Assembly: GCA_964036665.1 (NCBI GenBank) | Contig: OZ038530.1 | Span: forward strand, 22,466,001 to 22,530,000 | Reading direction: 5' to 3' | DNA from: Gordius sp. MW1 | Taxonomy: Eukaryota > Nematomorpha > Gordioida > Gordea > Gordiidae | Length of the DNA stretch: 64,000 nt | In this document: in pieces, positions 27,107 to 61,745 of the stretch | How positions within the stretch are numbered: position 1 is the first letter of the stretch | Layout of the letters: each line of letters opens with the position of its first letter | The notes under the pieces: model-generated | Told to the model about the DNA's origin: nothing | Database searches by the model: none | The model's input: only the letters and a program-made list of their open reading frames with translations | Made by a program: the position numbers and the translations under genes

Positions 27107-30199
<3,093 letters not shown>

Positions 30200-39349: not shown

Positions 39350-40850
39350 TTCAGTCCCCAAAATTTTGATAAAATTTAAATGCCTTGCCCTATTTTTCCT
39401 CCCAACACCGTATACCTAAAAATATTTAAAAAAAACAATTATGATTTCTTATCAAAAAATGTCTTACAAACATGATTTTACAAATATATACTCACACAAA
39501 AATAAAATAATAATATATGAAAAGAGATAATATTTTCTTGATGCAGATCTCACAAAATATTCTATGGTGATATGAAAGAATGAATTTTAAAGCAATTCTA
39601 TTATTCCTTAATTCTTACAATATTGGATGTATATTCGTATTTCCATACATTTGCAAAGGTTACCTTGTTAATTTCCAATAAAATTGTTTACCTAAGGTAT
39701 ACGCAGATTATTTAATTATTTTTTTAATCAATCTGTGTGCTTATGCTTTCATTTAATTATTATTATTTCTAGTGATTTATATTTACAAAATTATATTAAA
39801 AAAAGATCATTGGACTAATTTTGGTTATATAAAAATGCTTTAATATGTAGTATTTTACAAAATATTGCACATAGCATATATACTTAATAAACTTCCCCCT
39901 CTCTTTGTATATTTTATAAATAAATTTCATACTACTAATTTAATTATTTATCTGTGCTAATTCCCTATCACAAAAATTACCCTCCCTTTCGGTGTATTAT
40001 ATTCATTATTCAAAATACAATCATCCTAACTTGAAAAATAACATCTCCATCTAAGTGATGATATTATTAGATAGATATTAAGTTATGATATTTTATGTAT
40101 AATTGTTGAGCCTAAATTAAACCCTCTCTTAGCTTCTCAACTTAATGATTTTAAGCAATCCTAATATCATTTTATTTTAACAGCTGTTAAAAAATAGATG
40201 TTTTAATCTAACAGGTCAGCTTTATACATCGGTTTTACAGGCATTTGTGAGTCAAACCCATACAAATATTTATTTTTTCACATTAATTTAATTGTTAAGC
40301 TAAAAAAGCTTAAACAAAATTTAATTAGTGGGGTACAGAGAACCCCACGAGCCAAAAAGCTTCTATACATTAAAAAGTATTGGGCCAAAACCGATAAAAT
40401 TTTCACATTCTTGATAAGATTTTTAGGCTACTGAAAAGACTAGATCTATTAGTCAAAAATTGCGTTATATATTTTAAATTATAATTTGCAGGGGGTATGA
40501 GGTACCCCACAAATGCTCTTTTGGGTTAATAAATTTATGGTCACAGGGTCATCATGTTCAATCAGCTGAACGATTTAACAAGGTCTGCCTATTGTATGGG
40601 ATAATATTAATTACATTATCTAGAAACGATTTAATATAAAGTAAGCTGTCACATAATCACGTCCGAAACTTTGCCTATGATTTTTGATCTCGGACTAGTT
40701 AAAGATAATACAAAATAAAGAATTTAGATACCAAATATTTTCTGTATTTTGACATAATGATAGACAAAGATTATTAAATTGTGGCAACGTGTGCGTATAT
40801 TAGATCTAAATCCATAAGTACTAAAATGGCTTAGATCATTTATCAGCTGT
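39350..40850. other. AT-rich intergenic upstream of the F-box gene
   Basis: No gene seen. Two GGGGTAC..ACCCCAC-like patches (40329 and 40491) recall the GGGGTAC repeat at 38073. The F-box gene promoter is expected near 40700-40850; no motif is certain. Confidence 0.5.
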
Positions 40851-42786
40851 ATGAATGCACTGCCCTATGAAGTTAGGGCTAAAGTATTTGACCATTTAGA
40901 TGGCATTACATTTGCTAATATACAATCACTTTCACGTGAATATAATAATTTGTACAAGGAAATAATTTATACCATTCCAAATATATGGCACACAAAATGC
41001 ATTAAGGAAATAAATGAAGATTATATAAATGATGTTCTTGCAAAAAAAGAAAAATTCATGTAAGACTACTAGAACTCTGTATGAAGCTTTATTTAAGAGT
41101 CATATAATTTTTAATTTTTATTATTAAAGACATACAATAAACTTTGTATTTTGCAAATTGATCCCTAAACTTGACTTATTTCTTGGTAACTGAAACAATT
41201 ACTTATTTGTCTTGGCTGCTAATCTTTGAGATATGATCTTGGGTAAATTTCTGAATTTTTACTAACGGATTCTTAATGAGAATGACTTAATGAATGCATT
41301 ATCTTGCTGGTTAGACATGATAACTAAAATTTATTCTCTTCCCCACACATCAGCAATATATGTTTATGCATTTTTTCTAATTTATACCCATTGTATTTAT
41401 AGTTACACCGCTTCATATCATCCATTAGCAATAAAGGAAAGTAGTTGTCAAGAAGTTGGAGATCTAAATCTAGTATGGGAAAAATTATATGCCACCTGGT
41501 ATTTACAGAAAAGGATAGGGGGTTGGAAAAAGGTAGAAGCAATTAAGATTAACAAATATAGTGATGACAAGATTGGAGGAAATTTTTCAAATCCTGATTT
41601 AGACGTGATAACAAGGGCCATATTTAATGGTAGTTATTTAGTGACAGGTCATGAATCTGGTTACATTTGTCAATGGAACCTTGATAACCCAAAAACACCT
41701 CTCCCATTAGCACATCATGTAAGTGGGTGTATCAGAGACATGATATTAATCAACAAAATTTCTGCCCACCAAACCCTTTTAAGTGATCAACCTGTTACAC
41801 AATGGTTAAGGTACATTAGAATAGCTTCGATAGCACAAGATAACATGATAAAAATTAATCCTTTCTATGCAAGTCAACAGACTTGTGTTCCTAACCTAGC
41901 ACCTATATCAATATCACATCCTAGAGGACCTTCTGGGCCTCCAGGTGTTGGCCTTGATAAACCCTTCCTCACAGTCTTATGTCCTGTTGCGGGTCGTCCA
42001 GAATATTTTTGCACGGGGGCTCGTTGTGGTTTCGTAAGTATTTGGGAACAGGACGAAACGTGCGCTTACATGCGAATCCTATTTCAGGCTCACGATTCGG
42101 AAATCATACATTTAGCCACTTGCGGTCGTACCCTAGTGACCATATCTTTAGCCCTGGATCTTAAGCTGTGGTGGTTATTTCCATCTTCAACAGATGAAGC
42201 CAACGACTTAAGAAAGTTTTCCCTCCGGTGCTATCACAGCTTAAGTCTGGGTTTCCATTCTTATCAACAATCTTTACCCTTCGGTACTTCCACCTTTTAC
42301 ACGGGGCCTTGGAGTAATTTCGTTTTCAAAAACGATCTAGTTTTGGCGGCCAACCTCAAGCTCGTCGCGGCGCTCTTCGTTACGGCTCCACCTTACCAAC
42401 ACCAACCAGAGCAGGGAGGAAGTCGAGTAGCGGATACCCAAATTTCTTATCGTCAATGTAGGGCCGCTTCTAAATTGCCTTACTATTGCGAAAACGATTC
42501 CATCAACGCCCTGACCTTTAAGCACAATCTCCTAGGTGTAGCCACTAGCTCTGGTTGGATTTTGGTTTACTACATAAACCATCCAAACCAATTGTTGAGT
42601 GAATGGGAAAAGGGGCAACCTATTTGGTGTAGAAAATTGTCACCGACGAATTTGCTTTCGGAATCGAACTGTCATGCAGTTAGCAGCATTACTGGAATAG
42701 AAATTAGTTTAGATACTTGCAAACCTCGCGTTTCAGTAACAACGACCTTGGGTTTAGTAGTATACACATTCAATTCGAATTTGTGA
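40851..42786 (+). CDS. F-box / WD-repeat-like protein, two exons
   Basis: Predicted substrate-recognition subunit of an SCF-type ubiquitin ligase, inferred from domains only. Exon 1 (40851-41059) encodes an F-box: LPYEVRAKVFDHLDG at residues 4-18, with the typical W at IPNIWHTKC. Its donor, GTAAGA, is at 41060. Exon 2 (41403-42786) starts after an AG in the right phase, replacing the last codon by Ile, and runs to TGA; total about 530 residues. Exon 2 has WD-blade-like strands: YLVTGHESGYICQWNLD (about residue 147), FCTGARCGFVSIWEQDE (about 273) and TCGRTLVTISLALDLKLWWL (about 305). The blades are degenerate and I cannot count them safely. The frame stays open upstream of 41403 as far as 41290, but that part looks intronic. 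An AATAAA lies at 42994. A short out-of-frame uORF precedes the ATG. The closest named family is not recognised. Confidence 0.72.
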
Positions 42787-44262: not shown

Positions 44263-47200
44263 TTAAAAAGTTTTTATTTTTCGTTTAGCTAAATGATTAT
44301 CCATTGAGTCCTTTAAACAGACGGGACCCTGTGGACTGTAGCCTTTACAACAAATTTGAGTTCTGTGACATTTCACGTAGGTTGGCAGTTGCGTAGTCGA
44401 ATTTCGAAAACTAATCCATAAAAAATTACATTTAAAAAAATCTTTAAAGTTATTATTATTTATAAAGGTTTTAAATATTAAAAACCAAACTAACTTATTT
44501 ATTCTTAAATTGAGGCAATCGATTAGTTTTAAATGATCTAAATAAACATATGGTTTGATAGACTAGGAAATATTCTTTTCCCGTTAACCACTAAGTTAAA
44601 TATGACTTCAAGTTACTGCCATCTACAGTCAATTTAAAATCCAAAAACCTAGGCATTTTAACCACATTTGGAATCTTGGCAACGCTTGTGCGTTATATAT
44701 AGCATACTTAACGTTTTCGCTCATATATAAGCTCACTAAAATATCATAATATGATAATAATTAAAGCGATAGGTATATAAAGACCATGTTAAATGTAAAC
44801 TCTTATTATGTTAAGATAAGTACAATGAATAATTATTGCTTTGTTTTGTAATCAAAATGAATCTAGCTAATTAGATGGTATCGACAAATTAAAACTTGGT
44901 CAAACATTTGCCTTCAAGCTTTTATCTTGCTAACTATATAAATTCTTTCGATGATTTTAAAGTATTTTTTAATGAAATAATTTAAAACTGTTACCCCAAT
45001 GGTTGCCAGCATAAGTAAGGAGATGTTAGGAGATCTTTTGCTACTTGACATATTTCCAAATTGCATTTTTCGTACTGGGTTTGACGACTGTTAATTATAA
45101 GCATATTAATAAAAATATTATTAATTAATAAGAAAGACTTTACTAACTGTTCGATATATTAGAATTAGATAGCGCTCATAACAATTGTCAGTAAAACTTT
45201 GGAGACCTTTAGAGTTAGAACAAACTTAACTATGGCCAATGGGCACTAGAGGGAGACAGAAACGCAGATGACCCAACCCTCTTGCGTTTCTAATTTTTTT
45301 TTAAATTTTTAACCATATCAGGGTTTGAATATTGAAACATATGATTAAGTCACCCCTACTCCATAACCTGGCTAAGCCTCAATATAATACAGTGATTTGG
45401 CAATTTATTTAGACGGTGTTTTAAACAACACAATAGATTTAGACAATTCTTATATATATTAAAACAGCCTAAAACTGAGAATGTAAGGGGAATGCAGAAT
45501 CAAAGGTCAGATTTGGTCAAATATTTCTGCCCTAACACGGCCCTGTCCGATTTTTTAGCTAAATTGCCCGCCCGAGCCATTCTAAATGTCCGCTCGACCA
45601 AGCCCCTTTAGAGCTGCCCCGGTCCGAAATGATAATTTTCAACTTTTTACCACTATTTGTTATATACTTGTAAAAATTTTAAATTTAATCCTCCATTTTT
45701 TTGGATAAGAACTATGGTTACTAAATAACATACTATCAAAAAAAGTAACAATATAATACAGGAAAACAAAATAATACACTATAAAAAAATTTCATTGAGC
45801 ATTACCGAATCTTGTTACGGTGCCCGCGAGGACCCGCCCGAAAGTTTTATTTTATGGGCCGGGCTTTTAATTATTTAAAATAAAATGTAAGCTAATAAAC
45901 GCCAATTTTTATGCCAACTTTGTATTGTAATTTACTCACATACAAACTTGCCTGCCTTAATGTGTAAACAAAATTGTACCTTATAGTTAAGTGACAATTT
46001 TTTTGACATATCCGACTTCGTGATTTTACTCCGCATCCACCACAAGGTTCCGAACATGGTTCCCAGGGAGTCCAGAGACCCCAAAGGGCCCAGCTGTTTT
46101 GGGAAACGGATAAATATGCATTTCGATACACTATGTCATTTTGGGTACGATTCTGCCACTTTAATGACTCGAGGGGTATCCATTTGAGTTGCGTTAACGG
46201 TTTTAAAGCTTTGTTGGAACTTGACAAGGAGAAAGATTTCCTTATATCTTTAGGTATCTCATAAAATGGCGCCCATTTATTGCTAACTAAGATATTATTT
46301 TTTGGCACGCTTTTAAAAGGTTCCTTAGAAACATGCTTCGAACCTTTAGCCTTTTCACTACGTTCGACTTGGTTTTCATACCCAGCGCTCGATAAGATGT
46401 TGTTGTAGTTAGATTTGAGACTTTTATCAACAATGGCATTCGTCAATGATCGCTGAGCACTCGGCCATATGCTTTGGTTTAACGACTGCAAAATGTTCGC
46501 CGATTTACCATCGATTAAAATAGAGATTCCAGCAATGTTAGAGTTATCATGGGAGAAGTTGCTTTTTTCGAAATAGGTTACTCTAGCTTGCGCGTCATAG
46601 GGTGGAAAGGTGGGTTTTGGTATAGGCCCCGCGGTTTTCTCTTTATGATTTGGTACGTTACTTTGAGTGGGATAAACGGGCTTTGCTGTGACTAAATCCG
46701 TTCGGGTAGTATTAAGGAATCCTGTAACATCCTCTGGTTTAGATAAATCCCAATTTGTCTCTCCAAATCTTAAAATGTCATCCACATTTTCGTGATCCGT
46801 GACAATTGAAGTTAGGTCCAGAGTTCTGTCACCATATTTGTAGGTGTCCATTTGCTCTCGTTTGGGCGGCGGTAAGTGCCAGGGGTTATTTCCTCTAGTT
46901 TTAAAATACAATTCTTGTCCCAACTTATAGGGACGATCGTTAGATTTGTGATGAACTCTATTGCGTGATACAGGCTGACCTAGAAAATAATTGGAATCTC
47001 GTTGTTGGGGAGAAAATTTGGCTAATTGATCATTGGCATCTTGGTAAGTTTCGGGTTGAAAAAACAATTGATCGTAGTCGGCAAAATCATCAATGAATGA
47101 ATCCCCAGAAAAGCGGTCCTCCTTAAACCTTCGAAATTTAAAAAATTGGATGAATTAATGTGTATTAATTAATTACCTGCGAGCTTGGGGGATGACACGT

Positions 47201-50200
47201 TGTCTAATCCAATAGGGGTGAAACTCATAATCGTAATCCAAACGTGGTCTGCCACCATAGTATGTAGAGCGGGTTTGATTAGACTGAATGTAGCGATTTT
47301 GGTATCCACCCCTGGGATCCCTATATTGGGCGTTACCAATTACTGAGGGGTAAGGACGTCTCTGAGGATAATTTATCCTTACTAGGGGCGGAGGGCGATA
47401 CCTCGATTGCCCGTAATAACGTCTAAAAGCCGCACCTACTTGGTATTCCTCACCCTCCTCGTTTGGGGTTGTGGGTAGGGGAAAAAATGAGGGCGTACTT
47501 GAGGGCATAACCGTTTGAGAGGTAGGGACATATGAGGAGGGGTAAGAAACATCACCATTAACCTCAGGGTAATAAATTGGTGCCCTTGTGGTGTGAGGTC
47601 TATCGTACACTTTTCTATCGTAGCCCCAAGGTGGCCGGGTCGGGTAGGGACGTTTCTTGAAGTATTCTGGCCTGGTGGGTGGCTTAGGAGGGATAGGATA
47701 CCTCGAGGATCCTGAACAGTCGCAAACGCTAGGTTTGCTAGGTATTTGATCGATTTCGTTTCCACAAACTTAATACGCGATTATATCACAAACGTTCAAT
47801 AGTTTTAAAATTGTGTTTTAATTGTACATAATAGATTGATAAGTGAATAATAGCTATTAGTGTTATTATAATAGAACTGATACTACCACTAAAAATAAAG
47901 ATACGTAATTAATGGCCATAAGAAAATTGCAGCACCAATTAAAAAAATAATTTAAAGTTTTTTCCTTATTCGAGTTTGTATGCTAATTCTAAGACCACAG
48001 CCATTAACCCGCTTAAGTTTTCAAGGCCAGCACGGACAACCAAAAACGAGCCCAAGTAACGCATAGCAATTAATAAGCATCTTTTATACACTATAAAAGC
48101 ATGTCGTAAGCACATAACTATGATTTGATTTGCCTGTATTTTCTATTATTATTATTGTTATTAGTTATTACCTATAGACACTATCGCACGAAATCCCTTT
48201 CCACCATAATTAGCAGTTTCGCTAGATGATTCAAAAATTATAACCATTTGATCCGTTTCTGAATAAATATCTTCTTGCACATTACTTCCGCTACACATTC
48301 TACCTCATCAAACATAAATTTTAAATATTTTATTTTTAATTTAATAATAATTCGAATACATTTATAATTTTTATTTTTGGTGATAAAAGTTATTTTAACC
48401 TGGCACCGGTTAGACCTAAATCTTTGGCATATTTAACTTCTATCCAATGGGCACAAGCCCCAGTTTTCGATACGGGCATTTTAAAAGGAGCTGTCTTAAC
48501 GTAACTAAACTTGAGTCGGCCAGCTGTATCATTGCATTTTCCCTAAATTACCATAAATATTGGTAGAAATTATAAAAAATAAATAATAATTTTTAAATCG
48601 CTGGGTTTGGATTGATAGGTAGAGGATATGGAACGCGATATTTCTGGCTAGTTATAACCCATCATCAGAGAAAAAAAGGGTGAATATGAAGACACAAAAA
48701 ATAAAAATGAAGTATAGTGGGTGGTAACATGAACAAACACGTTGCAGACAAATTTTATTCAAATTATTTAATAAAAGTATCACATGGGTAAAATACATTG
48801 GTAAATAAAATATATATAAAATAAAAAATAAAACTCGGGCCTTCGACCCTCGTGGGAAGGGGGAGGAGGGAAGTGGACGGGAGGAGGAGAAGGGAAGGGG
48901 GAACGAAACTCATCTATACTCCGTATAAAAGTAGCATATTTGCTATGCAATTTATGGGCGAGAAAAGTGGGAAGGGGCGAGAATGCCTATAGGGAGTGTT
49001 AAATGAAAAATAATTAGTTAAATTTATACAAATGTTCCATCACTTTGGCCAGTGGTTATCTTTTCTATTGGTTAGCAGACAGCCAAATAACTAGCCTATA
49101 ATTATAATCAAGAAAAAAAATCGATTTTAATCTCACTTTGGCCAATGGTCATTTTTTTTAATGGTCAGTAGCCAGGACACGGTCAAATATTCATATTATC
49201 ATTGAAATAACAATAACAATATATTAATTTAAAAAAAACAGAAAAAATTTGCCCTCTCCGGGATTCGAACCCATATCAGTGAAGGCATAGGCTTTTGTAG
49301 GAGGGGGGGGCACAGGGACCCATATCAGTAGAGGCATAGGCCCTTCTACGGAAGGGCATAGGGTAATTATCAATGTTAACCTAATATACCAATTCTAAAA
49401 CTAAAAAAAAATTTCGAATCACAATTTGGCCAATGGTCATTTTTTTCATTGGTCAGTAGCCAGCGGATAGTCAAAAAGTCATATTATCAATGGTATTAAC
49501 AAGAACAAAATATTAATTTAATTTAAAAAAAAAATTTGTCCTCTCCGGGTATTGAACCAGCAAGTCAGAAAGTTGGAAGAAGGAGTTAGATAGGCCCTTG
49601 TAGGGGAGGGCATAGGGTAATTATCAATGTAAACCTAATATACCAATTCAAAAACGTGAAAAAAAATTGCGAATCTCAATTTGGCCAATGGTCATTTTTT
49701 TCATTGGTCAGTAGCCAGCGGACAGTCAAAAAGTCATATTATTAATGGTATTAATAAGAACAAAATATTAATTTAATTTAAGAAATTTTTTTTTGTCCTC
49801 TCTGGGTATTGAACCAGCAAGTCAGAAAGTTGAAAGACGGGGTCAGATAGGCCCTTGTAGGAGAGGGCATAGGGTAATTATCAATGTTAACCTAATATAC
49901 CAATTCAAAAACGAAAAAAAATATTTCGATTCACAATTTGGTTAATGGTCATTTCTTTCATTGGTCAGTAGCCAGCGGACGGTCAAAAAATCATATTATC
50001 AATGGTATTAACAAGAACAAAATATTAATTTAATTAAAAAAAAAATTTGTCCTCTCCGGGCATTGAACCAGCAAACCAGCAAGTCAGAAGTTGAAAGACG
50101 GTGTCAGAACGTTGGAGGACGGACGGACAAATGACAACAAAAAGCGAGTCCATAAATTGCATAGCAATTAATACTACAAAAGAAAACGCGTTAAAGACTA

Positions 50201-53200
50201 ATTGGATGGCATTGATCCATGTATGGAAATCTTGTTGGATTCGATGATTTCCATAGTGATCTTTTGCCTGATGTAGAAGAATTCCTTAGGTTCTCTAGAA
50301 GAATTCGTCATCGCTTTCCCGATTTGTTTGAGGAAAGCGAGAGCCTCTGAATCTAGGTTGCCTGCCAATAATGGTAGCCAACGCGGGGATGAAAACTGTA
50401 TTGGTGAGAGTGGAATATTTTTCGGTTTTTTTCCTCTCTGCCTTGATTATAAGGCCGGGGGAAGAGTTTGAGGGGGCGAAGATGTCGATAGATAAAAACA
50501 ATAGAAATTACAAATCCGGCTATAGCGAGAAATTAACAATAGTTGTTGTAGGGATGGATGCTTTTATAAATATAAGTACAGATGGATATACCGAAATACC
50601 GCGTTCCATTTCCCTCTACCTACTTTATCCATCCGAACCCACCGATTTTATACAAAGAAACACACAATTATGGATTAAATATACAATTTACAATTAGTAA
50701 TTTCAAATTTTAATAATATTTATTTATTTATCAATAAGTGAAACCTTAATAAACCATATACACTCTTGATTCAATGTGTATTGAAGGGGATGATTTGGTG
50801 ATGCTATTTCTATAGATCTCATTGTTGAATTGAGAACGTGGGTTCCGACATTTTCAGGACATTCCACTTAAAAAAAATTATTTTGAAAAATTATATAAAA
50901 TATGTAAAAATAATAAAAACATTCTTAAACATTCTTTAAATAAATTTTCTTAAATTTTTTATTTAACTTTAAAACTAATCATGCTTTTAGATATATTATA
51001 AACTGTTTTAATTTGTCGTTGAAATAAATCTTTTACTTAAATATAAAAGCTTTATTTTTAAATTTAATATACTTAATTTGAATAAAAAAATAAATACCAG
51101 TTCCCATAACACCCATTGTACAATTTCCGTCCCCCAAACCAGTTGGACAAATACATTTTTTGCAATTTTTAGGATTAGCATATCCTCCATTCGAACATTC
51201 GGTACTATTAATCGGACATGAATCTGAATAAATAAATGAATAAACAAACTAATAAATAAATAAATCTTTACTTTTGCAATATAACGTGTTCACTAATTTG
51301 TTATCGTAGAAAGAGGGTTTGTAAGAACTGCCCATCGTGGTTTGGTAATATGAATTTGAGCTCATTATAGTTGGTTCATTTTTGAGCGACTTTTTATATA
51401 ACTGTATATTAAATAAAAAATATCCTATGTAATACAAAATATTTCGATTTTATAATATTTTAATTTTGTTTATAACATATTTAACAAGCGTAATAGTTAT
51501 TTTGTAAGATTAAATCATGGGCTTAGATAGCATTGGAATTAGAAGGGGGCAATAATGATTCAGGGAGGGGCAAAATGATTATATTATAAATTTTAGCCAT
51601 AATTTTAATAAATTTAAAAAAAATTGGATTTAGAGGGGGACAGCCGCCCCTCCCTGCCCCTCCCCCCTGGCTATGCCCATGTTAATGCTGTACCTAAATA
51701 TTCGTAACACAATTGACTGATGAACAGCTGATTTTTGGCATTAAAATTTATTAAGTAACATATAGCCATCTTGGATGAGATTATCTTCAATATACGCATT
51801 GCGCATTTAAATCTTTCAAAATTATGGAAGTATCGAATAATTACTTAATAATTATCAGCTGTTCTCCAGTCTAATATTAATTAAGGCAACTCGAATTTAA
51901 ACAAACTCACCTAAAAATCCTAACTTAGGCATTTTATATTTAAAGTGATAAATAGAAGAAAAAAATAGCTATAAAAGGACGTACGTATTGTGGTATATGT
52001 AGCAGACTTCCATAATCATATGGGATCTTCATGTTCGAACCGCGGTTAATACTGAAAGATTCGTAGTAACTAGGATCAACCTAATCAACAATTTCGAAAT
52101 TAATAAATAAATATTTAAAAATTTTAAAATTAAATAAATTCCTGCAAATAAGGTTATAATAATATACGTTGAATAAATTGAGGTGGACATGTTCGTCCCT
52201 ATCTGTCCTTGTATGGGTGTGCAGTAACCCCAAAACATGCCCAATCACTTTTGCAACTGAACCAATCTAAATAAATAATCATCATAAATTTATTTAATAT
52301 TTGATTTATTTATTTTAATTATAGTAAATGTTATTTTACGTTGGCGCAATACGGAAAATCTAAATAGATTTTTTGTGGTCCTCCAACTCTACCAACAAAA
52401 GTTCGACATCTTTTTTGATAATAAATTTGGAATATTACAAATAAACAAAAGAAAAAATGTATAAATTCTACACAAAATTTAAAGCAAGCAAAAATAATTA
52501 GTTTAAAAAATTGTTGTTAACTAAATTACATTATAAACTATAAAGATAAAACATTTTAAGTTTTTGCAAAATTTGAATTAATTTTGAAATCGAATATATT
52601 TTTAAGTTTTTTATAATAAAAAATCTTACGTATTATCATTGAGATCCTCAAACATGATGTAATGATCAGAACCCTTGGTTTCACGAAAGTCTAAACACGT
52701 GTAATCAGTCCAAGCCTCTAAAGCAAACCTCAGGATTTGTTTATCAATCTCCGCTAAAATATGTAAACAACTATTTACTAAAATCAACCCAACCAATTTT
52801 AAAACTACAGGCACACACATCCACACCTAATTATCTAATTTATCTTTCAGTGCATTACACTATTTTTGTTAAACACAGTTACTATATTTATATATAAGAG
52901 TGTTTATCTTTTTATTTTATTTTTTTGATATTTTTCCTTTTCGCACCTTTTTTCAAGCACCATCTGTACTTAGTTATTCCTATTTCTTATAAGAACTCCA
53001 TTGTTACAATCGCTATTGTTAATTACACGCTATAATCAGATTTGCAATTTCTTTGTTTTTATCTATCAACGTGTTTTTGTTAACCATAAACTCACTATAA
53101 TTCATTTTTTTGTGTGGCTTTATCCTCACCCTTTTTTTCTTCTGATGGGCTATAATTTCCCAAAATATCGCGTTCCATTTATCTCTACCTACTTAATCAA

Positions 53201-54150
53201 TCCAAACCCACAGATTTTGTACAAAAAAATTAACTATTTAATTGGTTATTTATTATTCATCCCAGCATTATTTTTGTCTTCAAGTAAAATAACTTTGGTT
53301 GTACATTGTAAATTTTCCTAGACAATTTTTGAATCTACATACTACTTAATGATGTAACGGGCGTGTCGGGGAGGGGGGGGGGCGTTATGGGATGTTATGC
53401 ACAAAATGTCCATAGCATAGTTAGGACTATAGGGGAGGGCACTATTAAAAAAGGGATCTAACACTAGGGAAGCGCTGCTCATGATACACTTTTTTGATTG
53501 TGATGATAATAAGTATGTTTGCTCCTTTCAAAAGCGTACGTCTAAAAAGCCAGGCTAGATAACAACGCTATATTACCAATTCGTCACATCCTTATTTTTA
53601 AGTTATCAATTCTGGTATTTTTTATCTTACATCTTAAAGAGCTTTCTATATTTAATAAAATTATTTAATTTTGGATAACAAGAAACAACGTTTTCACAAA
53701 CTACACAACAAACTCACATCCGATACTAGTTCCAAATTTGTAATAAATTATGTTGGAAGTCCACAAAAATTCGTTCATGTCTCCGGTTATGGCGTTACGC
53801 CGGTCACGTGACATCGTACCACGTGGTCTCGCGACTTGGGGTGGTTCGAAGTATTGATATTGGCCCTTATCTAACATCAAATCCCCTTCAAACACTCCTT
53901 TAAAGCTTTGGGCATCCTAAATATATTTAATTTACAAAATTATTTATTTATCTATTTATTTAAACTTTTATTCCAAATTGAAAAAAATATATTTTAATGT
54001 GATACTTTTGTATAGGATCCATAAGAACCATAATAATTGCCATAGGTAGTCAAAACATATTCAACTCTCTTTTTATATATAGCTTTGAGATTATTTAATT
54101 CTTCTGGTGGAATTCCCTCCAAATTTCCATTTTCTTTATTATTCTTAAAT
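44263..54150 (-). CDS. Astacin-EGF-CUB-TSP1 protein (NAS-33/38-like), probable pseudoprotease
   Basis: Predicted secreted multidomain protein of the astacin family with the domain order of nematode NAS proteins carrying TSP1. Exons in transcript order: about 54150-54006, 53916-53718, 52753-52630, 52409-52340, 52266-52168, 52080-51985, 51401-51272, 51223-51098, 50867-50745, 48542-48400, 48299-48172, 47768-47177, 47128-45980 and 44410-44263; all phases close, about 1090 residues. The propeptide contains the cysteine-switch-like FEGD. The mature start is RNAITGDMNEFLW. The astacin core has YTCLDF, CRTFVGRVGG and the metal region KVIGHVLGLLHTHTRTDRD, where HExxH would be expected. The Met-turn reads SLLHI instead of SxMHY. 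Next come EGF (CSNGGYANPKNCKKC), CUB (51-kb to 48-kb exons), a Pro/Tyr/Arg-rich linker, and TSP1 (WALWGLWTPWEPCSEPCGGC) ending in CHRTQICCKGYS. The signal-peptide exon was not resolved; a possible in-frame start lies near 54200. Confidence 0.85.
45520..45885. mobile_element. GCCCGCCCGA-type MITE, copy in astacin 3' intron
   Basis: GATTTTTTAGCTAAATTGCCCG to GTGCCCGCGAGGACCCGCC and GGGCCGGGCTTTT. The interior TTTTTTTGGATAAGAACTA is shared with 55175-55485. Confidence 0.65.
48035..48078 (+). repeat. Composite-repeat right-end fragment
   Basis: GGACAACCAAAAACGAGCCC then AACGCATAGCAATTAAT. An equivalent fragment with a GGACGGAC run is at 57638-57698 in a vezatin intron. Confidence 0.7.
48836..50173 (+). 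mobile_element. Composite satellite-bearing repeat in the CUB intron
   Basis: Left end CTCGGGCCTTCGACCCTCG and purine tract, TTTGCTATGCAATTTATGGG at 48941, satellite units, and right end GGACGGACAAATGACAACAA followed by CCATAAATTGCATAGCAATTAA (split motif). Same order as 33336-34797. No host-site duplication seen. Confidence 0.82.
49130..50100. repeat. Tandem ~256-bp satellite with tRNA-type B-box motifs
   Basis: About four units combine GGCCAATGGTCATTTTTTTC, AGCGGACAGTCAAAAAGTCA, a TCCTCTCCGGGTATTGAACC block and GGGCATAGGGTAATTATCAA. On the minus strand the first block carries GGTTCGAATCC (49261-49271) and the next three GGTTCAATACC or GGTTCAATGCC (49548, 49804 and 50059). Confidence 0.88.
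50198..50501 (-). pseudogene. Second relic of the same non-LTR retrotransposon C-terminus
   Basis: In reverse, one frame reads SIDIFAPSNSSPGLIIKAER, KKTEKYSTLTNTVFIPALAT, then shifts to LDSEALAFLKQIGKAMTNSS, REPKEFFYIRQKITMEIIE and a TAG stop at 50198-50200. It continues exactly where the relic at 10-330 breaks off and shares IDIFAPS and a K..KY motif with it. It lies in the CUB intron of the astacin-like gene, next to the end of a composite repeat (48836-50173). At least one frameshift, so non-functional. Confidence 0.75.
51517..51681. mobile_element. MITE, CATGGGCTTAG/CATGGGCATAGCCA family
   Basis: CATGGGCTTAGATAGCATTG to CCCTGGCTATGCCCATG, with CAATAATGATTCAGGGAGGG inside. In an astacin-gene intron. 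Confidence 0.75.
51712..51875. mobile_element. MITE with GAACAGCTGAT ends
   Basis: GACTGATGAACAGCTGATTT at the left and, inverted, TAATTATCAGCTGTTCTCCA at the right. Related sequence at 15178-15295 (GGTGAACAGCTGATTTTTGC ... TCAGCTGTTCGTC) and a half-copy at 21655-21690. Confidence 0.7.
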
Positions 54151-54199: not shown

Positions 54200-55595
54200 A
54201 TTTATATTAATAAAAATAAATGTTATTTAAAGGGTGATTTAGTAAAAGTGACATTTAAATTATTTCCAAATTATAATATGAATTCAAAAAAAAATTGAGC
54301 TAGTGACCTATTCAATTTCAGGCAGGTTCAAAATATAATTCATACCTAATTATTTATAAAAAGTAACACTGAAAATATATTATTAAATTTATTTTGATCA
54401 AATATTATTTTAAATAAAGTTACTTCATAATCAGGATACTGTCCATTTGAAAAATCGATTAATATAATAATTAGAAATAAAATCATGATTTATATCAAAA
54501 TATAGGAATAACTAAATTCTAGACTTTTTGTCAGAAATATGATATCATCACATGAGTTAGAAGTTCATACAACTCTGTAGTGTTAAGTAAACATAAATTA
54601 AAGGGTTAATAAAGTTGGTTGATCTTGTTTTAAAAATAAAAGTATGTACATTTAATAGAATTAATATCAAAAATTTATAATTGTTCAAAAAAGCTAAAAT
54701 TAATATAAGTCAAATAGGCATTATTTAAAACCATACAAATCTACCAAATTTGAAAATAACTAGTAACGTGTCTAAAATAAAATCGTTTAATTTATTTTAT
54801 TTATATCATTAAATTAGTTTTGACAATTTAATATAAAACCAATTTAGAATGGAAAATAAATTAATTGTTAAAAATAATTAACTCTGCTTTGATACTCCCA
54901 AAATATCAAATTACATATAACCTATATAAAGACGTCATTTTTTTATTTAAACAATCATCAAAATTTTTTAATATTTTAAAGTACTATAATGGCCAGAAAT
55001 TTTTTTTTTATATTTGTTAATAACCATCTTAAATTACTACAATTTTTTTTTATAGTTTCATTGAATAAAAAATGCCTATTAAAAAAATTACTACAATTAG
55101 CATTAAAAAAAAATTATGATTAAATTCTTTTTGATAAATTTTGATAATAGGCGTAGTTCTAAAAAAAGTTGACGTTCTGAACAGCAGAAATCAGATTTGT
55201 CAAAATTTTTTGCCACGCCCGAATTATTAAATGCCAGGCTCGAAATGATGTTTTTTAAAGTTTTTAGTACTAATATTTTGTAAAAAATTTCTATTTCAAT
55301 TTACGATTTTTTGGGATAAAAACTAGGATTAATAAAAATCAAGATCAAATAAAATTGTGAAAATTCAATACACGAAAACAGAATAAAATTTTTTTTGAAG
55401 ATATCATAGAGCCCAAATTTTAATATGGTGCCCGCCCAAAAATATAAGGCGGGGCTTTTTGGTCTCTGCTGAACATGAAACTAGGGAAAAATTGCTAGAG
55501 TTCATTAAATTTTACTAAAAAGTTTTGGTACATCAATTCCTGATCAATATTTTCAAAGAAATATTTAAAATTAATTTAAAATATAAATCTGGAAA
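54200..55595. other. AT-rich intergenic between astacin-like and vezatin-like genes
   Basis: Both neighbours are on the minus strand. No gene seen. A GCCCGCCC-type MITE spans about 55175-55485 (AACAGCAGAAATCAGATTTG to GGTCTCTGCTGAAC). Confidence 0.5.
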
Positions 55596-55599
55596 GTTT

Positions 55600-57535
55600 T
55601 AAAGTAATTTAAAATTAGGGACAAACATTGACTGGCAGGGCAGGATAATAATGGTATTGGCTATATAACTATTTTAATATAAGATTAATTTTTTAAAAAA
55701 TAGCATATGCCATCTATATTTCTACTAATTTACCAGAGCAAATCACAATTAGTTATAATTATGAAAATATAAAATAACTACAATGGATAGAATGAGTTAT
55801 TACATAATATTATATTACCAATGATTATTTATCAATACAATCCAAATAAAAATAAAATTTCTTAAAAGTTTAAGATGGCGGTCGTTTTTTGCAATACAGT
55901 TGAAACTTCTTAATCGCAAATCGGATTATCGCGAAAATCTTTTAATCGCGAAGTTAACCGCCATTTTGTTTATTTTTAAACGATAATATTAACAAAAACA
56001 TCGTTTATTGACAAATCGCTTAATATTACAATATCGGATATTCACAAACATTTGGAGTCCTTAAATCAACGAGATAATTATATAAAATATCGTTTTATTA
56101 CGAAGCGTAAGAAATGAATATTTAATATAATGTACATATACTTTTATTTCCATGGTTTAATCGAGAAATATCGGTTAATCGCGATTTTTTCAGGCCCAAG
56201 GCTTTGCAATTAAACGGTTTTGACTGTATAAAGTCTATGGAAAACTATGTATTAATACAAAATAACGCTAGTTTATTAAATTAAGAATTATATAAACATT
56301 GACAAATTCGGCAATTGTTTTACAAAATAAAATATATCAGGAATAAAATTCTTCGGTATCGTTTGCTTTTATTTCAAGTGCTCGCGTAGCCACCTCGTGT
56401 GCTAAAGTCATCGTAGAAAAACTCCGATTTGGCATTAAAATTTGTGGGCAAACTTCTAAACAACTTTCAGGAGCGATTGTCTCATTCTCATGGGATCCAT
56501 TTTCAAATTCCAAGGCGATTTCTGGCTCATTCTTATGCAAATTAAGTAGAATAAATTTAATTCACTTCTATAAATTATGGTATAAGCGTGGTAAAAAAGC
56601 TATAAATCATATAATAATGACTTTAATAAGACTAGGGTTTTGAGAATCATTATCTTGATCTAGATCCCCGAGGTTGATACCATTTTCCAAAGCTAGCAAA
56701 TCCAACATTTCTTCAATACCGCGCAAAGAAGTAGAAGAAGCCTTATCATACAATTTAACTGCCACCAATTTTTTGTTGAGCTCATGAAATTTCTCTTCTA
56801 TCGTACCTATATTGGTCGGCAAATTGCCGTCCTCTCCCTTTGAAGAGTCCAGACTTCGGCCTTTAAATTCGGCCAAGAAGGTACGAAATTTCCAAAATTT
56901 TTCCCTTATCCGCAAAATATCCTTGAGTTCTTTGTGAATTCCACGAAATTTGGATTTAATTTCCTCGTCCTACCACATATATTGACAAACATAAAGTAAA
57001 ATATTATCTTCAAAAAGTTCCTAAAACATTTTGGTGAGACAGGATTTTAAGTAAGATTTTATGGCATTCTTGAAGAATTCTCTTGTCATAAAAATCCTTT
57101 TGACCTAACCTGAACAATGTTTTACAACTTATTTTATATTCGGCGGTCAAAAAAGCTCATCAGGTCTATAACACGCTATGGAAATTGCGACAAAATAAAT
57201 GTCATTTTTAATAAATGGCGTCAAAAGTTGGATCCAAAATTACGAATTCTAATTTGAATATAAATTGTTATAATTATTAAATTACCATGATGTAAAACTC
57301 ATTAAAAGTTTTTGTCTAGTTTTATAATGCAAAATATTCGCAAATATTTAGACTATAAAAAATTATGACTTACTTTGATAAAATTTCCGTCCCAATCTTC
57401 AACATCATCGCTTTGATTTACTTCAATATCGCTATGGTTTCTTACGAAAGGGTCGGCCTGAAAGAACTGACAAAACAATTATTAATTGTTTTAGCTATTT
57501 ATAAAATATTGTGCAATAACTAGCCAATGTAAACA
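55600..57535. repeat. Left arm of a large inverted duplication (vezatin 3' half)
   Basis: The sequence from about 55600 to 57535 matches the reverse complement of about 60160-61745, including introns and 3' flank. For example, GACCGCCATCTTAAAC and GTTATATAGCCAATACCATT are found in both arms. The arm contains a 330-bp MITE absent from the other arm. The spacer between arms, about 2.6 kb, is the 5' part of the vezatin-like gene. Confidence 0.85.
55897..56226. mobile_element. pogo/Tc1-type MITE with TA target duplication
   Basis: 330 bp bounded by CAGTTGAAACTTCTTAATCG at the left and, inverted, CAGTCAAAACCGTTTAATTG at the right, flanked by TA on both sides. The interior repeats motifs such as ATCGCGAAAAT and ATCGCGATT. 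The orthologous site in the other duplication arm (around 61425) has one TA and no insert, an empty-site proof of insertion. The CAGT terminus and TA duplication fit the Tc1/mariner superfamily (pogo/Tigger-like). No coding sequence. Confidence 0.85.
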
Positions 57536-60028
57536 ATTTATTTTTAATTATCTAACGCACGCAAAGTGTGAGAAATTTGAAAATTGTTTGGCTAAGTTTA
57601 ATACTCAAATTTATATAAATTTAAACTTAATTAATCTAACAGACGGACGGACGGACGGACAACCAAAAGCGAGCCCATAAGTTGCAAAGCAATTAATAAC
57701 ATAGATTAAGGATAATCGATGCAATTGTCGTAGTATTGGGACCTCAGTCAGCCCAGCCATATAGAAAAACTAGATAAAGACATCATGTTTATAACATCAT
57801 TCCTAGATTAATATTTAAGTTTATTAGTAATAATTAATTTTAGGCTTCCAGAAATAATTTTAAACATTAGAAAAGAATTTAAAAGATTAATTTTCAAGAG
57901 ACCTGATCTTGGATGGGCTCATCAGCGGAGCAGTAAATTGGCTTGAAATCATGACCTAAGGTCAAAACGAAATTTTATTAAATTTTAAAATGGATATAAT
58001 CCCTCACTTTGGTCATTTTTGGGAAAAAGTGTTAACCGGTCTAACGATGAACCTTCATCCGTGTCAGAGCGTAGATCGGGAGATATTATAGCCTGCTCGT
58101 TATTAATCAGCTGATCGAAACATTGTTCGCAAACCTCAACTTTGGATTTAATCTCGCGCATTATTTTCAAAACGATGTCGGACCTATCGACGCCATCTTG
58201 AATTGTTGCGGGATTTCCCCGGCACCAATCCACATATTTAATCCTAGGCGCGTAAAAATCAATTTAATCACGAGAGTTTTAGACTATAATTTATAACTTT
58301 ATGTTGCAATGCCCCCCCCCCTACATTTTTATGGATATATATAATAGATAATAATTTTTTTTGCCATTTTCCATTATGCCCCCGCTTCAGAGTTTAACCC
58401 TACAATGACTTTAAGGCTGGCAATTTTTTTTACATTTCTATAATAATATCCGTTCAAAAGACTTAGGTACATTTTTTTAATGAATACTTCATAATTTCAA
58501 GTAGATTTGAGATTTCCCCCATTTAAAGTTCGATATATGACACAAAAAATGTTTGAAGTTTTAGAATTATTTAGCCGCTAATTTTATATATAAATCTAGT
58601 TAAGCTTAATTTAAAATTAAGGTAAAAAGAAAAATAAAGTGGATTTTTAAAAGAGTATATACATAATCGTGGCTTGGTTCAAATTTTCCAAAATGGTGCG
58701 CGTTACGAATCCGTCCGCGTTTCCGGTCAGACCGCGGCGGCCATCTTGAAATGATGGGGTAAACTTAGGAGGGTCATTCAACTCCGCTACCCCCATATAT
58801 AACCACGTGACGTATTCCAGCTGATTAGTCAACCTAGACACGTGACCCTTAGATGAATGTTAAAGAAACAATTGAAATTTACACTTAATGTTGGTCAAGT
58901 AGACTCTATTGAAATAAATATTTAAGTAAATTCCAAAATGTTAAATATTTATCCATTTTTAATATAACAGCAATTTAAATTTCTTTTCAAACCTTCAATA
59001 GTTGAGTACAGGTGGTCACGTGATTGATTTCGGCGTCCCATATTAAATCCCGTGACCCTAGCTGCCCATTGATCACATTTTTACGAGGGTATGTCAGGAG
59101 GGAGTATAGGAAATCATCAACCAAACGATTTATGACCACGTTATATAGACTGTACGCATTGTGAATCCTTGGGGCTTGTGGACTGCCAACATTTTGCAAA
59201 GAATCAATGTAAGCCAATATTTCCTACAGATATACACAAGTCAAATTGTTTTTGAATATTAAAATGAACAAGGATAAATGAGAACAAAAAAAAATTAAAA
59301 AAATTAATATTTTTGAATTTGTTAGACAAGTTTATGTTTAAAAGATATAATAATATAAAAATAAGTAATACTACATAATAAATACCTTACATCCCCTAAA
59401 TAAACAAGGTTATAATCAGATAATTGCCTTATTGCTGTGGTGATATTTCTTTGCAAAGTTGTTTCAAATTCCAAAGCAGATTTGAAAAAATGGCTAGTTG
59501 TTAAATCTCTTATATTAATATAACTACATTTGATTAAATTTATCATAAGAATGTTGTTTACTGCAAGCAACTCTTTTGATTGAGTTTAAAGTGATTAACA
59601 AATTGCACAGCTTCTTTGAGTAAATCTTTGTATAATTTCAATTGTTGCAAAAAAGATGATAAGTAGTAAACTTTATAGTTTAGATATAGTAGATCATAGC
59701 ATCTTTTTAGCAAGCTTATAATATAGAAAATCAAGCTGCAGCCAATGAGTAAAAATAATGTAACATACAATGACCCTAAATTGCCATAATTTAACCAGGC
59801 AAAAAAGCAAGTGATGTATGAAATAAGGAATAAATTTAATTTTCTATAAATAGTTGCAAATTTAATTATTTAATTGCACCTGTCATAGAAAATTATGCCT
59901 ATTAAACCATTTTTAGTATTTTTTCTTAAATCATTTTCATTATAGCATTCTATTTTCCGTTTCAAGTTGCTATCTATTAAACAAAATTGGTTCAATAACC
60001 TTATTCCTTTAGCTAATATGTATTTATC
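56337..60028 (-). CDS. VEZT: Vezatin-like membrane protein, 5' end incomplete
   Basis: Vezatin is a transmembrane protein of adherens junctions that binds myosin VII. Exons in transcript order: 60028-59908 (donor GTTTAA, weak), 59775-59562, 59508-59391, 59223-58993, 58847-58663, 58243-58008, 57955-57903, 57457-57374, 56969-56622 and 56531-56337. Every junction keeps phase and the gene ends in TAA; about 594 residues. The second exon begins with a membrane hairpin (LYVTLFLLIGCSLIFYIISL). The 56969 exon is Lys/Glu-rich and coiled-coil-like (DEEIKSKFRGIHKELKDIL). The C-terminus, PNRSFSTMTLAHEVATRALE, resembles the conserved vertebrate vezatin tail SPDFTFTAGLAAEVAARSL (recalled, not searched). 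The similarity is weak in the middle. Upstream exon(s) with the start codon were not found; they would lie in or beyond the inverted duplicate that begins about 60160. A different double-pass junction protein cannot be excluded. Confidence 0.62.
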
Positions 60029-60159
60029 CTGTATAATCAAACAATTAAATTAAATGCTCAAAAATTTGAAATATAAACCAACCATGTGTTTTTCATGAAA
60101 CCGGTCAAAGTACAGAAAAGCAGCGAATTGTCACAAAAATAAGAAATTGTTATTATTAG

Positions 60160-61745
60160 TGTATGTTATTGCACAATATTTTATAAATAGCTATACAGAA
60201 AATATTTAATAATTGTTTTGTCAGTTCTTTTAGGCCGACCCTTTCAAAAGAAACAATAGCGATAGAGGTAAATCAAAGCGATGATGTTGAAGATTGGGAC
60301 GGAAATTTTATTAAAGTAAGTCATAATATTTTATAGTCTAAATATTTGCGAATATTTTACATTATAAAACTAGACAAAAACTTTTAATGAGCTTTATATT
60401 ATGGTAATTTAATAATAGTAACAATTTTTATTTAAATTATAATTCGTAATTTTGGATCCAACTTTTGACACCATTTATTAAAAATGAAATTTATTTTGTC
60501 ACAATTTCCATAGCGTTTAATAGACCTGATGAGCTTTTTTGACCCGCCGAATATAAAATAAGTTATAAAATATTGTTCAATTTAGGTCAAAAGGATTTTT
60601 ATGACAATAGAATTCTTTAATAAAGCCATAAAATTTTACTTAAAAATCCTATCTCCCCAAAATGTTATAGGAACTTTCTGAAAATGATATTTTACTTTAT
60701 GTTTGTCAATATATGTGGTAGGACGAGGAAATTAAATCCAAATTTCGTGGAATTCTCAAAGAACTCAAGGATATTTTGAGTATAAAGAAATTTTTTTGGA
60801 AATTTCGTACCTTCTTGGCCGAATTTAAAAGCCGAAGTCTGGACGCCTTAAAAAGAGAGGAAAGCGAATTGCCGATGAACATAGATGCGATAGAAGAGAA
60901 ATTTCATGAGCTCAACCAAAAATTGGTGGCAGTTAAATTGTATGATAAAGCTTCTTCTACTTCTTTGCGTAGCATTGAAGAAATGTTGGGTGTGCTAGCT
61001 TTGGAAAATGGTGTTGACCTTGAGAGACCAGGATAATGAATCTAAAAACCCTAATCTTCAAACTCCTAAAGTTAATGATTTATATTTTTACTAAGATTAT
61101 ACCATAATTTAAAGAAGTGAATTAAATTTATTCGTCTTAAAATTAAGAATGAACCAGAAATTGCCTTTGAACTTAAAAATGGATCCCTTGAGAATGAGAA
61201 AATCGCTCATGAAAGTTGTTTAGAAGTTTGCCTACAAATTTTAATCCCAAATTGAAGTTTTTCTACGATGAATTTAGCGCGCGAAGTCGCTACGCGAGCA
61301 CTTGAAATAAAAACAGACTTTATTTTGTAAAACATTTTCCAAATTTGTCAATGTTTATATAATTGTGAATATAATAAATTAACGTTATTTTGTAGTGAAT
61401 ACATAGTTTTCCACAGACTATATAGTGCAAAAGACCGCCATCTTAAACATCTAAGAAATATTTTATGATTTGGATTGTTTTGATCAATAATCATTGGTAT
61501 TATAATAGAACTCATTCTATCTATTAGAGTTTTTTCATTATTTCCTAATTAAAATTAATTGTATCCTGGTAAATAAGTAGAAATGTGGATGGCACCATTA
61601 ATTTTATTTATTAAGGTCATTTTTCTAAAAATTATAATATTTTTTTAAATAGTTATATAGCCAATACCATTATAATAATATCCAATCATCAAAATTTGAA
61701 ATTTAATTATTTCTCATTTTAAATTACTTTAAAACTAGTTTAAAT
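60160..61745. repeat. Right arm of the inverted duplication
   Basis: This is the mate of 55600-57535. It starts just upstream of the most 5' vezatin exon seen, near the shared sequence TTATTGCACAATATTTTATA, and ends near TTTAAATTACTTTAAAAC. The exon copies are described in the pseudogene entry. Confidence 0.82.
60234..61328 (+). pseudogene. Inverted, broken copy of the 3' exons of the vezatin-like gene
   Basis: Three exons and their introns repeat 57457-56337 in opposite orientation. The copy of exon 57457-57374 lies at 60234-60315 and is 82 nt instead of 84, so it is frameshifted. The copy of exon 56969-56622 lies at 60722-61070; it is open for most of its length but has a small indel and a stop at 61034-61036. 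The copy of the last exon starts at 61148 and has CGG changed to TGA at 61253-61255. Splice sites are largely retained. Many differences between the copies look synonymous or conservative, so the copy may have been functional for a time. Transcription cannot be judged from sequence. Confidence 0.85.

What the first reader, a model, noticed from the sequence alone, without database searches (positions are those of the whole stretch)
51985..52409. Astacin domain with its catalytic residues replaced: a candidate extracellular pseudoprotease
The expected astacin signature HExxHxxGxxHExxRxDRD reads KVIGHVLGLLHTHTRTDRD here. The first zinc His is Lys, the catalytic Glu is Val, and a conserved Glu is Thr. 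The downstream Met-turn SxMHY reads SLLHI, losing Met and the Tyr ligand. The surrounding fold residues, the cysteines, the propeptide FEGD, and the EGF, CUB and TSP1 modules are intact with all exon phases kept. That argues for a maintained non-enzymatic protein rather than a decaying gene. Several independent substitutions also argue against sequencing error.
Basis: partly seen in the sequence, partly recalled or inferred. Interest (0 to 1): 0.78.

Follow-up and report, generated by a model that had tools for sequence, protein, structure and literature searches.

The report
Secreted astacin with dead active site
An animal gene for a secreted, multi-domain relative of the astacin proteases has lost the residues that bind zinc and cut protein, yet its reading frame and most fold residues are intact, so it probably works as a binding or regulatory protein rather than as an enzyme.

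Summary
A minus-strand gene (16 predicted exons, 54486-44263) encodes 1,139 residues without internal stop: signal-like peptide, prodomain with FEGD and RDRR|NAI, astacin domain (Pfam 134.9 bits), six-cysteine EGF-like segment, CUB, 539-residue Pro/Tyr-rich linker, TSP1. The zinc motif reads KVIGHVLGLLHTHTRTDRD and the Met-turn SLLHI; 81 of 81 comparators keep HExxHxxGxxH. Of 36 columns at least 90% conserved, 26 are kept; five of seven metal or catalytic columns are lost against five of 29 others (p = 0.010). The five lost residues lie at least 11 of 15 nucleotides from canonical codons; neutral drift that far predicts about 76 stops. Unconstrained decay is therefore rejected for this gene model. 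Best reading: a maintained non-catalytic astacin, probably an extracellular-matrix adaptor or decoy; partners and mechanism are inferred. Orthologues, expression and dN/dS could not be tested; species and phylum are unknown. The domain is also more divergent overall than active astacins. The architecture matches nematode subgroup V. In an open library I found no study of an inactive astacin, though one paper mentions spider astacin-like transcripts without the full motif.

The parts
54424..54486 (-). Exon 1: start codon and signal-peptide-like MILFLIIILIDFSNG, then QYPDYE
54006..54143 (-). Exon 2: N-terminal part of the prodomain
   Evidence: Open frame, AG/GT borders
53718..53916 (-). Exon 3: prodomain with FEGD (Asp79 codon at 53883), furin-like RDRR (codons from 53808), mature start N108-A-I (53796) and start of the astacin domain
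   Evidence: motif meaning from PMC9629494
52630..52753 (-). Exon 4: astacin domain, Cys153 (astacin Cys42)
52340..52409 (-). Exon 5: astacin domain, Cys176 and Cys196 (astacin Cys64-Cys84 pair)
52168..52266 (-). Exon 6: zinc motif replaced: K204 V205 I G H208 V L G L L H214 T215 H T R T D R D (52251-52195)
51985..52080 (-). Exon 7: Met-turn region, S-L-L-H-I in place of S-I-M-H-Y (52008-51994)
51272..51401 (-). Exon 8: end of the astacin domain, Cys305 (astacin Cys198 by position; the astacin fragment aligned here ends before it)
   Evidence: Pfam match reaches the last model position
51098..51223 (-). Exon 9: EGF-like segment with six cysteines
   Evidence: Sequence and count; no Pfam EGF hit
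50745..50866 (-). Exon 10: CUB, first part
   Evidence: Pfam PF00431, 28.2 bits, cut-off 21.4
48400..48542 (-). Exon 11: CUB, middle
48172..48299 (-). Exon 12: CUB, end
47177..47768 (-). Exon 13: Pro/Tyr/Arg-rich linker, first part
   Evidence: Composition (10.4% Pro, 7.1% Tyr over 539 residues)
45980..47128 (-). Exon 14: rest of the linker and first part of the TSP1 domain
   Evidence: Pfam PF00090, 23.7 bits, cut-off 21.6
44995..45087 (-). Exon 15: end of TSP1
44263..44410 (-). Exon 16: cysteine-containing C-terminus and stop codon
   Evidence: Open frame to the TAA stop

Best explanation
The gene encodes a maintained, secreted, non-catalytic astacin of the EGF-CUB-TSP1 architecture. Shown here: the predicted gene anatomy, the intact frame and the loss of five of seven zinc or catalytic residues. 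Inferred: it is secreted, the prodomain is removed at RDRR|NAI, and the astacin module folds with both disulphides but cannot hold a catalytic zinc or activate water. Inferred further: through the cleft, CUB and TSP1 modules it binds the matrix partners that an active sister enzyme binds. It would then act as an adaptor, enhancer or competitor in the extracellular (probably cuticular) matrix, with the long Pro/Tyr-rich linker as a spacer.
For: A 1,139-codon frame over 16 exons with 15 of 15 introns GT-AG and no internal stop. Across the propeptide and astacin part, exons are 28-44% GC while the five introns of 220 nt or less are 10-15% GC (the two longer ones, 583 and 964 nt, are 29-31%). Pfam Astacin 134.9 bits over model positions 2-189 of 189, CUB and TSP_1 above cut-off. 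26 of 36 columns at least 90% conserved are kept: 24 of 29 non-catalytic against 2 of 7 metal or catalytic (Fisher one-sided p = 0.010). The five lost residues are at least 11 of 15 nucleotides from canonical codons; at the neutral divergence where that reaches about 5% (d = 0.8) a mean of 75.7 stops is expected and none of 2,000 runs was stop-free. At the same divergence 5.6 of 29 non-catalytic columns should survive, against 24 seen. The four disulphide cysteines are kept.
Against: No orthologue, transcript or dN/dS was available. Five conserved columns that I did not class as metal or catalytic also changed (S66T, I146L, F154Y, Gln to Ser, Arg to Ser), and the domain is more divergent than astacin or BMP1 from the comparators (29% against 39% and 40%). 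One of the 79 bacterial relatives has a natural Met-to-Leu Met-turn (SILHY, L061) with HExxH intact, so M147L alone need not abolish activity. FEGD and the NAI start are retained although their partners (zinc, Glu103) are gone, which is unexplained. Any binding partner is guesswork. The gene model has no RNA support.
Confidence: 0.66

Rival explanations
1. Structural matrix or cuticle protein: the former protease domain is only a stable folded block, and the selected function lies in the CUB, the long Pro/Tyr-rich linker and TSP1, with no regulatory link to active astacins.
For: The linker is 539 of 1,139 residues, 10.4% Pro and 7.1% Tyr; the astacin domain has diverged more than active ones.
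Against: 24 of 29 conserved non-catalytic columns are kept, more than neutral drift leaves, and the prodomain motif and cleavage site are kept, so the protease part is itself constrained.
Confidence: 0.2
2. Recently disabled gene on its way to decay (pseudogene).
For: Accelerated divergence of the domain; no expression data.
Against: No stop in 1,139 codons; neutral drift to the seen change gives dozens of stops. Losses are concentrated at metal and catalytic columns. All 15 pairs of splice borders are GT-AG.
Confidence: 0.07
3. Still a metal-binding or weakly catalytic protein: the two remaining histidines, with another ligand, hold a metal.
For: H208 and H214 (astacin His96 and His102) are kept, as is the prodomain Asp of FEGD that binds the metal in zymogens (PMC9629494).
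Against: The first histidine, general base and Tyr ligand are lost together with the Met-turn Met and the family Glu.
Confidence: 0.05
4. Artefact: assembly error, or an unseen alternative exon restores the motif.
For: No reads or transcripts were available.
Against: Five separate codons, at least 11 of 15 nucleotides, differ in two exons without frameshift; no HExxH in an astacin context in 64 kb, six frames; no second astacin stretch.
Confidence: 0.02

Closest known systems
Nematode astacins of subgroup V (NAS-33 to NAS-38, including HCH-1 and DPY-31)
   Same: Order signal peptide, prodomain, astacin, EGF, CUB, TSP1 (PMC2824743, passages; PMC4406453, passages)
   Different: The zinc motif and Met-turn are broken here; 1,139 residues against 592 and 614 for DPY-31 of C. 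elegans and T. circumcincta, with a 539-residue linker. PMC4406453 states that subgroup V is nematode-only; the phylum of this window is not established. The group's layout is not rigid: H. contortus NAS-33 lacks TSP1 (PMC8313830, passages).
ADAM pseudopeptidases (for example UNC-71, ADAM11, ADAM22, ADAM23)
   Same: Metzincin fold with a broken zinc motif, kept for roles other than cleavage; UNC-71 reads QSIGHLLGLEHD (PMC11266112, passages)
   Different: A different metzincin family, typically membrane-anchored with disintegrin domains; ADAM pseudopeptidases typically keep the Met-turn, which is lost here
Limulus LAST-MAM and crayfish astacin
   Same: FEGD(I) propeptide motif and N-A-I mature start in LAST (PMC9629494 abstract, passages and section 3.4); 29-32% identity to crayfish astacin
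   Different: Active enzymes with zinc, the family Glu and the Met-turn
BMP1/tolloid proteinases and the CUB protein PCPE-1
   Same: Astacin plus CUB and EGF modules; non-catalytic modules and CUB proteins bind substrate and tune cleavage (PMC4988381, passages), a model for a non-catalytic role
   Different: Tolloids are active; PCPE-1 is described there as a CUB-domain protein, with no astacin domain mentioned
Spider digestive-fluid astacin-like transcripts without the full motif
   Different: No sequence, architecture or functional claim for the other three was seen; they may be fragments

Membership tests
Astacin family M12A as active peptidase | Astacin-domain homology | tested here: met
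   PF01400 134.9 bits, cut-off 22.5, model 2-189 of 189
Astacin family M12A as active peptidase | Zinc motif HEXXHXXGXXH | tested here: not met
   KVIGHVLGLLH; definition from PMC9848320
[quoted passage not shown]
   Thr215; 77 of 79 bacterial relatives have Glu there
Astacin family M12A as active peptidase | XXRXDRD after that position | tested here: met
   HTRTDRD
Astacin family M12A as active peptidase | SIMHY Met-turn with the zinc-binding Tyr | tested here: not met
   SLLHI; 77 of 79 bacterial relatives match S[IVML]MHY, the other two read STMHY and SILHY
Astacin family M12A as active peptidase | Prodomain aspartate (PP motif FEGD in LAST) | tested here: met
   FEGD, Asp79
Astacin family M12A as active peptidase | Cysteines of the two conserved disulphides | tested here: met
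   Cys153, 176, 196, 305; bond formation itself not testable
Astacin family M12A as active peptidase | Peptidase activity | not testable with these tools
   Needs protein
Subgroup V (EGF-CUB-TSP1) astacins | CUB then TSP1 after the astacin domain | tested here: met
   PF00431 28.2 bits (cut-off 21.4) and PF00090 23.7 bits (cut-off 21.6)
Subgroup V (EGF-CUB-TSP1) astacins | One EGF module between astacin and CUB | tested here: inconclusive
   Six cysteines in the right place but no Pfam EGF hit up to E = 1
Subgroup V (EGF-CUB-TSP1) astacins | Groups with subgroup V in a tree | not tested
   No animal subgroup V sequences were available
Pseudopeptidase (inactive metallopeptidase homologue) | Homologue of a peptidase lacking metal-binding and general-base residues | tested here: met
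Pseudopeptidase (inactive metallopeptidase homologue) | Maintained as a protein under selection | tested here: inconclusive
   Neutral decay rejected from the single sequence; no orthologues or expression

The most novel reading that the evidence does not exclude
A catalytically dead member of the EGF-CUB-TSP1 astacins that regulates matrix or cuticle processing from outside the cell, as a substrate-binding competitor or enhancer of its active sisters. It may be kept in a permanently latent proform in which the retained FEGD segment lies across the metal-poor cleft.
Probability: 0.2. Interest if true: 0.65.

Novelty: new variant of a known kind. Interest (0 to 1): 0.4.

Why it matters
Pseudoenzymes are well described among ADAM metzincins. 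The 2024 review of inactive metallopeptidases holds the word astacin once, in a general list of metzincins (passages only). If this protein is expressed and conserved, it gives the astacin family a clear non-catalytic member whose active-site loss is extensive while the rest of the zymogen design is kept. That would let one ask what the fold and the CUB and TSP1 modules do without cleavage in matrix assembly or moulting.

Tried and rejected
Pseudogene: rejected by the open frame and the neutral simulation. Alternative exon or local paralogue restoring the motif: none found in the window. Orthologues: no genome is held for the window; viral-contig scans with an astacin alignment and with residues 1-482 of the protein found no relative. 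The genome-contig scan matched 445 relatives in a collection of bacterial and archaeal genomes; the tool kept the best 80, giving 79 distinct loci, and all 79 were used. They serve for conservation, not for orthology. They were chosen by two peptide patterns, one around the third His and HTR, one around the Met-turn, so conservation at those two places is partly built in; the first His and the Glu after it are in neither pattern. Organism: an exact 19-base repeat search in viral contigs, Rfam at gathering threshold and ARAGORN gave nothing; the phylum stays open. A tree was not built, for want of animal sequences.

Literature: ten searches in the open-licence library. Several listings were capped (20 of 93, 20 of 56, 15 of 22, 15 of 118, 10 of 40), so a paper could be missed. 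No listed title or abstract start describes an inactive astacin. I opened 11 papers, for passages only except for one section of PMC9629494. Two of these bear on novelty: PMC5553785 reports astacin-like spider transcripts of which only 9 of 12 show the motif and/or cysteines, and PMC4545420 mentions atypical residues in a few Poecilia meprins. The 'catalytically inactive' protein in the scorpion paper PMC4398375 is a chitolectin, not an astacin. MEROPS and UniProt, which may list inactive astacin homologues, were not searched.

Full report
What is there. The minus strand from 54486 to 44263 carries one predicted gene of 16 exons. All 15 introns start with GT and end with AG. The joined frame has 1,139 codons and one stop, at the end. 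In the 15-exon model, at the stop-triplet rate of the introns (7.6% per codon), about 85 stops would be expected. Pfam finds Astacin (134.9 bits, model positions 2-189 of 189), CUB (28.2) and TSP_1 (23.7), all above their cut-offs. The EGF-like part has six cysteines but no Pfam hit. Between CUB and TSP1 lies a 539-residue linker, 10.4% Pro and 7.1% Tyr.

The active site. The stretch that should read HExxHxxGxxHExxRxDRD reads KVIGHVLGLLHTHTRTDRD, and SxMHY reads SLLHI. By alignment with crayfish astacin the changes are H92K, E93V, E103T, I146L, M147L and Y149I; His96 and His102 remain. PMC9848320 (abstract and passages) names the three histidines and the Tyr as zinc ligands, the Glu of the motif as general base/acid, the Met as the floor of the metal site and Glu103 as the anchor of the mature N-terminus. 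So zinc binding in the usual way and catalysis should both be gone; this is inference from the sequence.

Is it chance or decay? The genome-contig scan gave 79 distinct astacin loci (the best of 445 relatives). 79 of 79 carry HExxHxxGxxH, 77 of 79 have the following Glu, and 77 of 79 match S[IVML]MHY, the other two reading STMHY and SILHY; astacin and BMP1 carry HExxHxxGxxH too. The scan patterns did not include the first His or the Glu after it, but did include the third-His region and the Met-turn. With these 81 comparators, 36 columns are at least 90% conserved (60 or more ungapped rows required); the window protein keeps 26. Of seven metal or catalytic columns (His92, Glu93, His96, His102, Glu103, Met147, Tyr149) it lost five; of the other 29 it lost five (S66T, I146L, F154Y and a C-terminal Gln-Arg pair); Fisher one-sided p = 0.010. 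The five lost codons differ from the nearest canonical codon at a minimum of 11 of 15 nucleotides. In a neutral model with intron base composition and a transition bias of 2, that much change has about a 5% chance at 0.8 substitutions per site; there a mean of 75.7 stops is expected, and none of 2,000 runs was free of stops. At that divergence 5.6 of the 29 non-catalytic columns would be left unchanged, against 24 seen; none of 3,000 runs reached 24. The model counts no indels, which makes it lenient. It takes the canonical residues as ancestral and the gene model as correct. The result rejects free drift of the gene; it does not by itself show purifying selection today.

Evidence that goes the other way. 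The domain is more divergent from the comparators (mean 29%) than astacin or BMP1 are from the bacterial set (39% and 40%), and it keeps 26 of 36 conserved columns where the next lowest sequences keep 31 of 36 and crayfish astacin 25 of 29. Constraint on the domain has therefore relaxed beyond the active site. No orthologue was found and no transcript data were available, so fixation of the changes is untested. The Met-to-Leu change alone also occurs in one relative with an intact zinc motif (L061).

A detail worth a test. The zymogen design is kept although its partners are gone. FEGD is present; its Asp binds the catalytic metal in the Limulus zymogen and in other metazoan astacin zymogens (PMC9629494, abstract and passages). 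The mature start after RDRR would be N-A-I, as in Limulus LAST, whose Asn is modelled to bind the family glutamate (section 3.4); here that glutamate is Thr. Arg106 of the same network is kept (Arg218). The prodomain may still be needed for folding, or may still lie over the cleft.

How it most likely works. The protein is probably secreted, matured by a furin-like enzyme and folded, and acts by binding. Two precedents suggest how: ADAM pseudopeptidases such as ADAM22 act as receptors for secreted partners (PMC11266112, passages), and the non-catalytic modules of tolloids and the CUB protein PCPE-1 bind substrates and tune cleavage (PMC4988381, passages). The same architecture with an intact site is the nematode subgroup V, whose characterised members digest eggshell, shed old cuticle or process a cuticle component (PMC2824743; PMC4406453; passages). 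A competitor or enhancer of such an enzyme in the outer matrix is therefore the favoured guess, with a purely structural matrix role as the main rival.

Membership and novelty. It has the astacin fold signature but fails three defining sequence features of active astacins, so it should be filed as a non-catalytic astacin homologue and not as an astacin peptidase. Its domain order is that of subgroup V, but membership in that group was not tested by a tree. PMC4406453 calls subgroup V nematode-only; I could not establish the phylum of the window. Ten open-library searches (several listings capped) showed no study of an inactive astacin as such. One paper notes spider astacin-like transcripts that lack the full motif and/or cysteines (PMC5553785, passages), so motif-less astacins have been glimpsed before. 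This says nothing about subscription journals or about MEROPS and UniProt entries. I rate it a new variant of a known kind, interest 0.40.

Noticed in passing
56227-57545 and 60138-61424: Inverted duplication of about 1.3 kb, 86% identical; both arms carry related open frames (56607-56969 - and 60722-61036 +) with no Pfam hit at E 0.01. Possibly two diverged copies of one gene.
   Followed up: partly
5511-6163 and 6955-7615: Inverted repeat of about 0.66 kb, 94.6% identical, with a 0.8 kb spacer: looks like a recent mobile element or hairpin.
   Followed up: no
18061-19061 and 33777-34501: Two blocks of the same tandem repeat in opposite orientation, 72-86% alike over the listed pieces; a related but weaker match (70%) lies in intron 10 of the astacin gene (49403-49763).
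   Followed up: no
49115-50049: Tandem array of units of about 255 nt inside the 2.2 kb intron between exons 10 and 11.
   Followed up: no
54486-44263 (-): The 15 splice acceptors of this gene end in TAG (7), AAG (5) and CAG (3), few CAG for an animal gene (that expectation is recalled). It may help to place the species.
   Followed up: no
14210-14488 (+): Exon of an ST7 homologue (PF04184, 116.2 bits).
   Followed up: no
40818-42786 (+): Open frames with weak, below-cut-off hits to F-box (16.3 bits) and beta-propeller models (up to 22.9 bits): perhaps an F-box/WD gene; its frame ends about 1.5 kb from the astacin gene, on the other strand.
   Followed up: no
29416-29712 (-): Frame containing VYVMTGMYGDPAEIGAGICLLIIIQ, which I recognise from memory as Sec61 alpha; Pfam gave no hit at E 0.01.
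   Followed up: no
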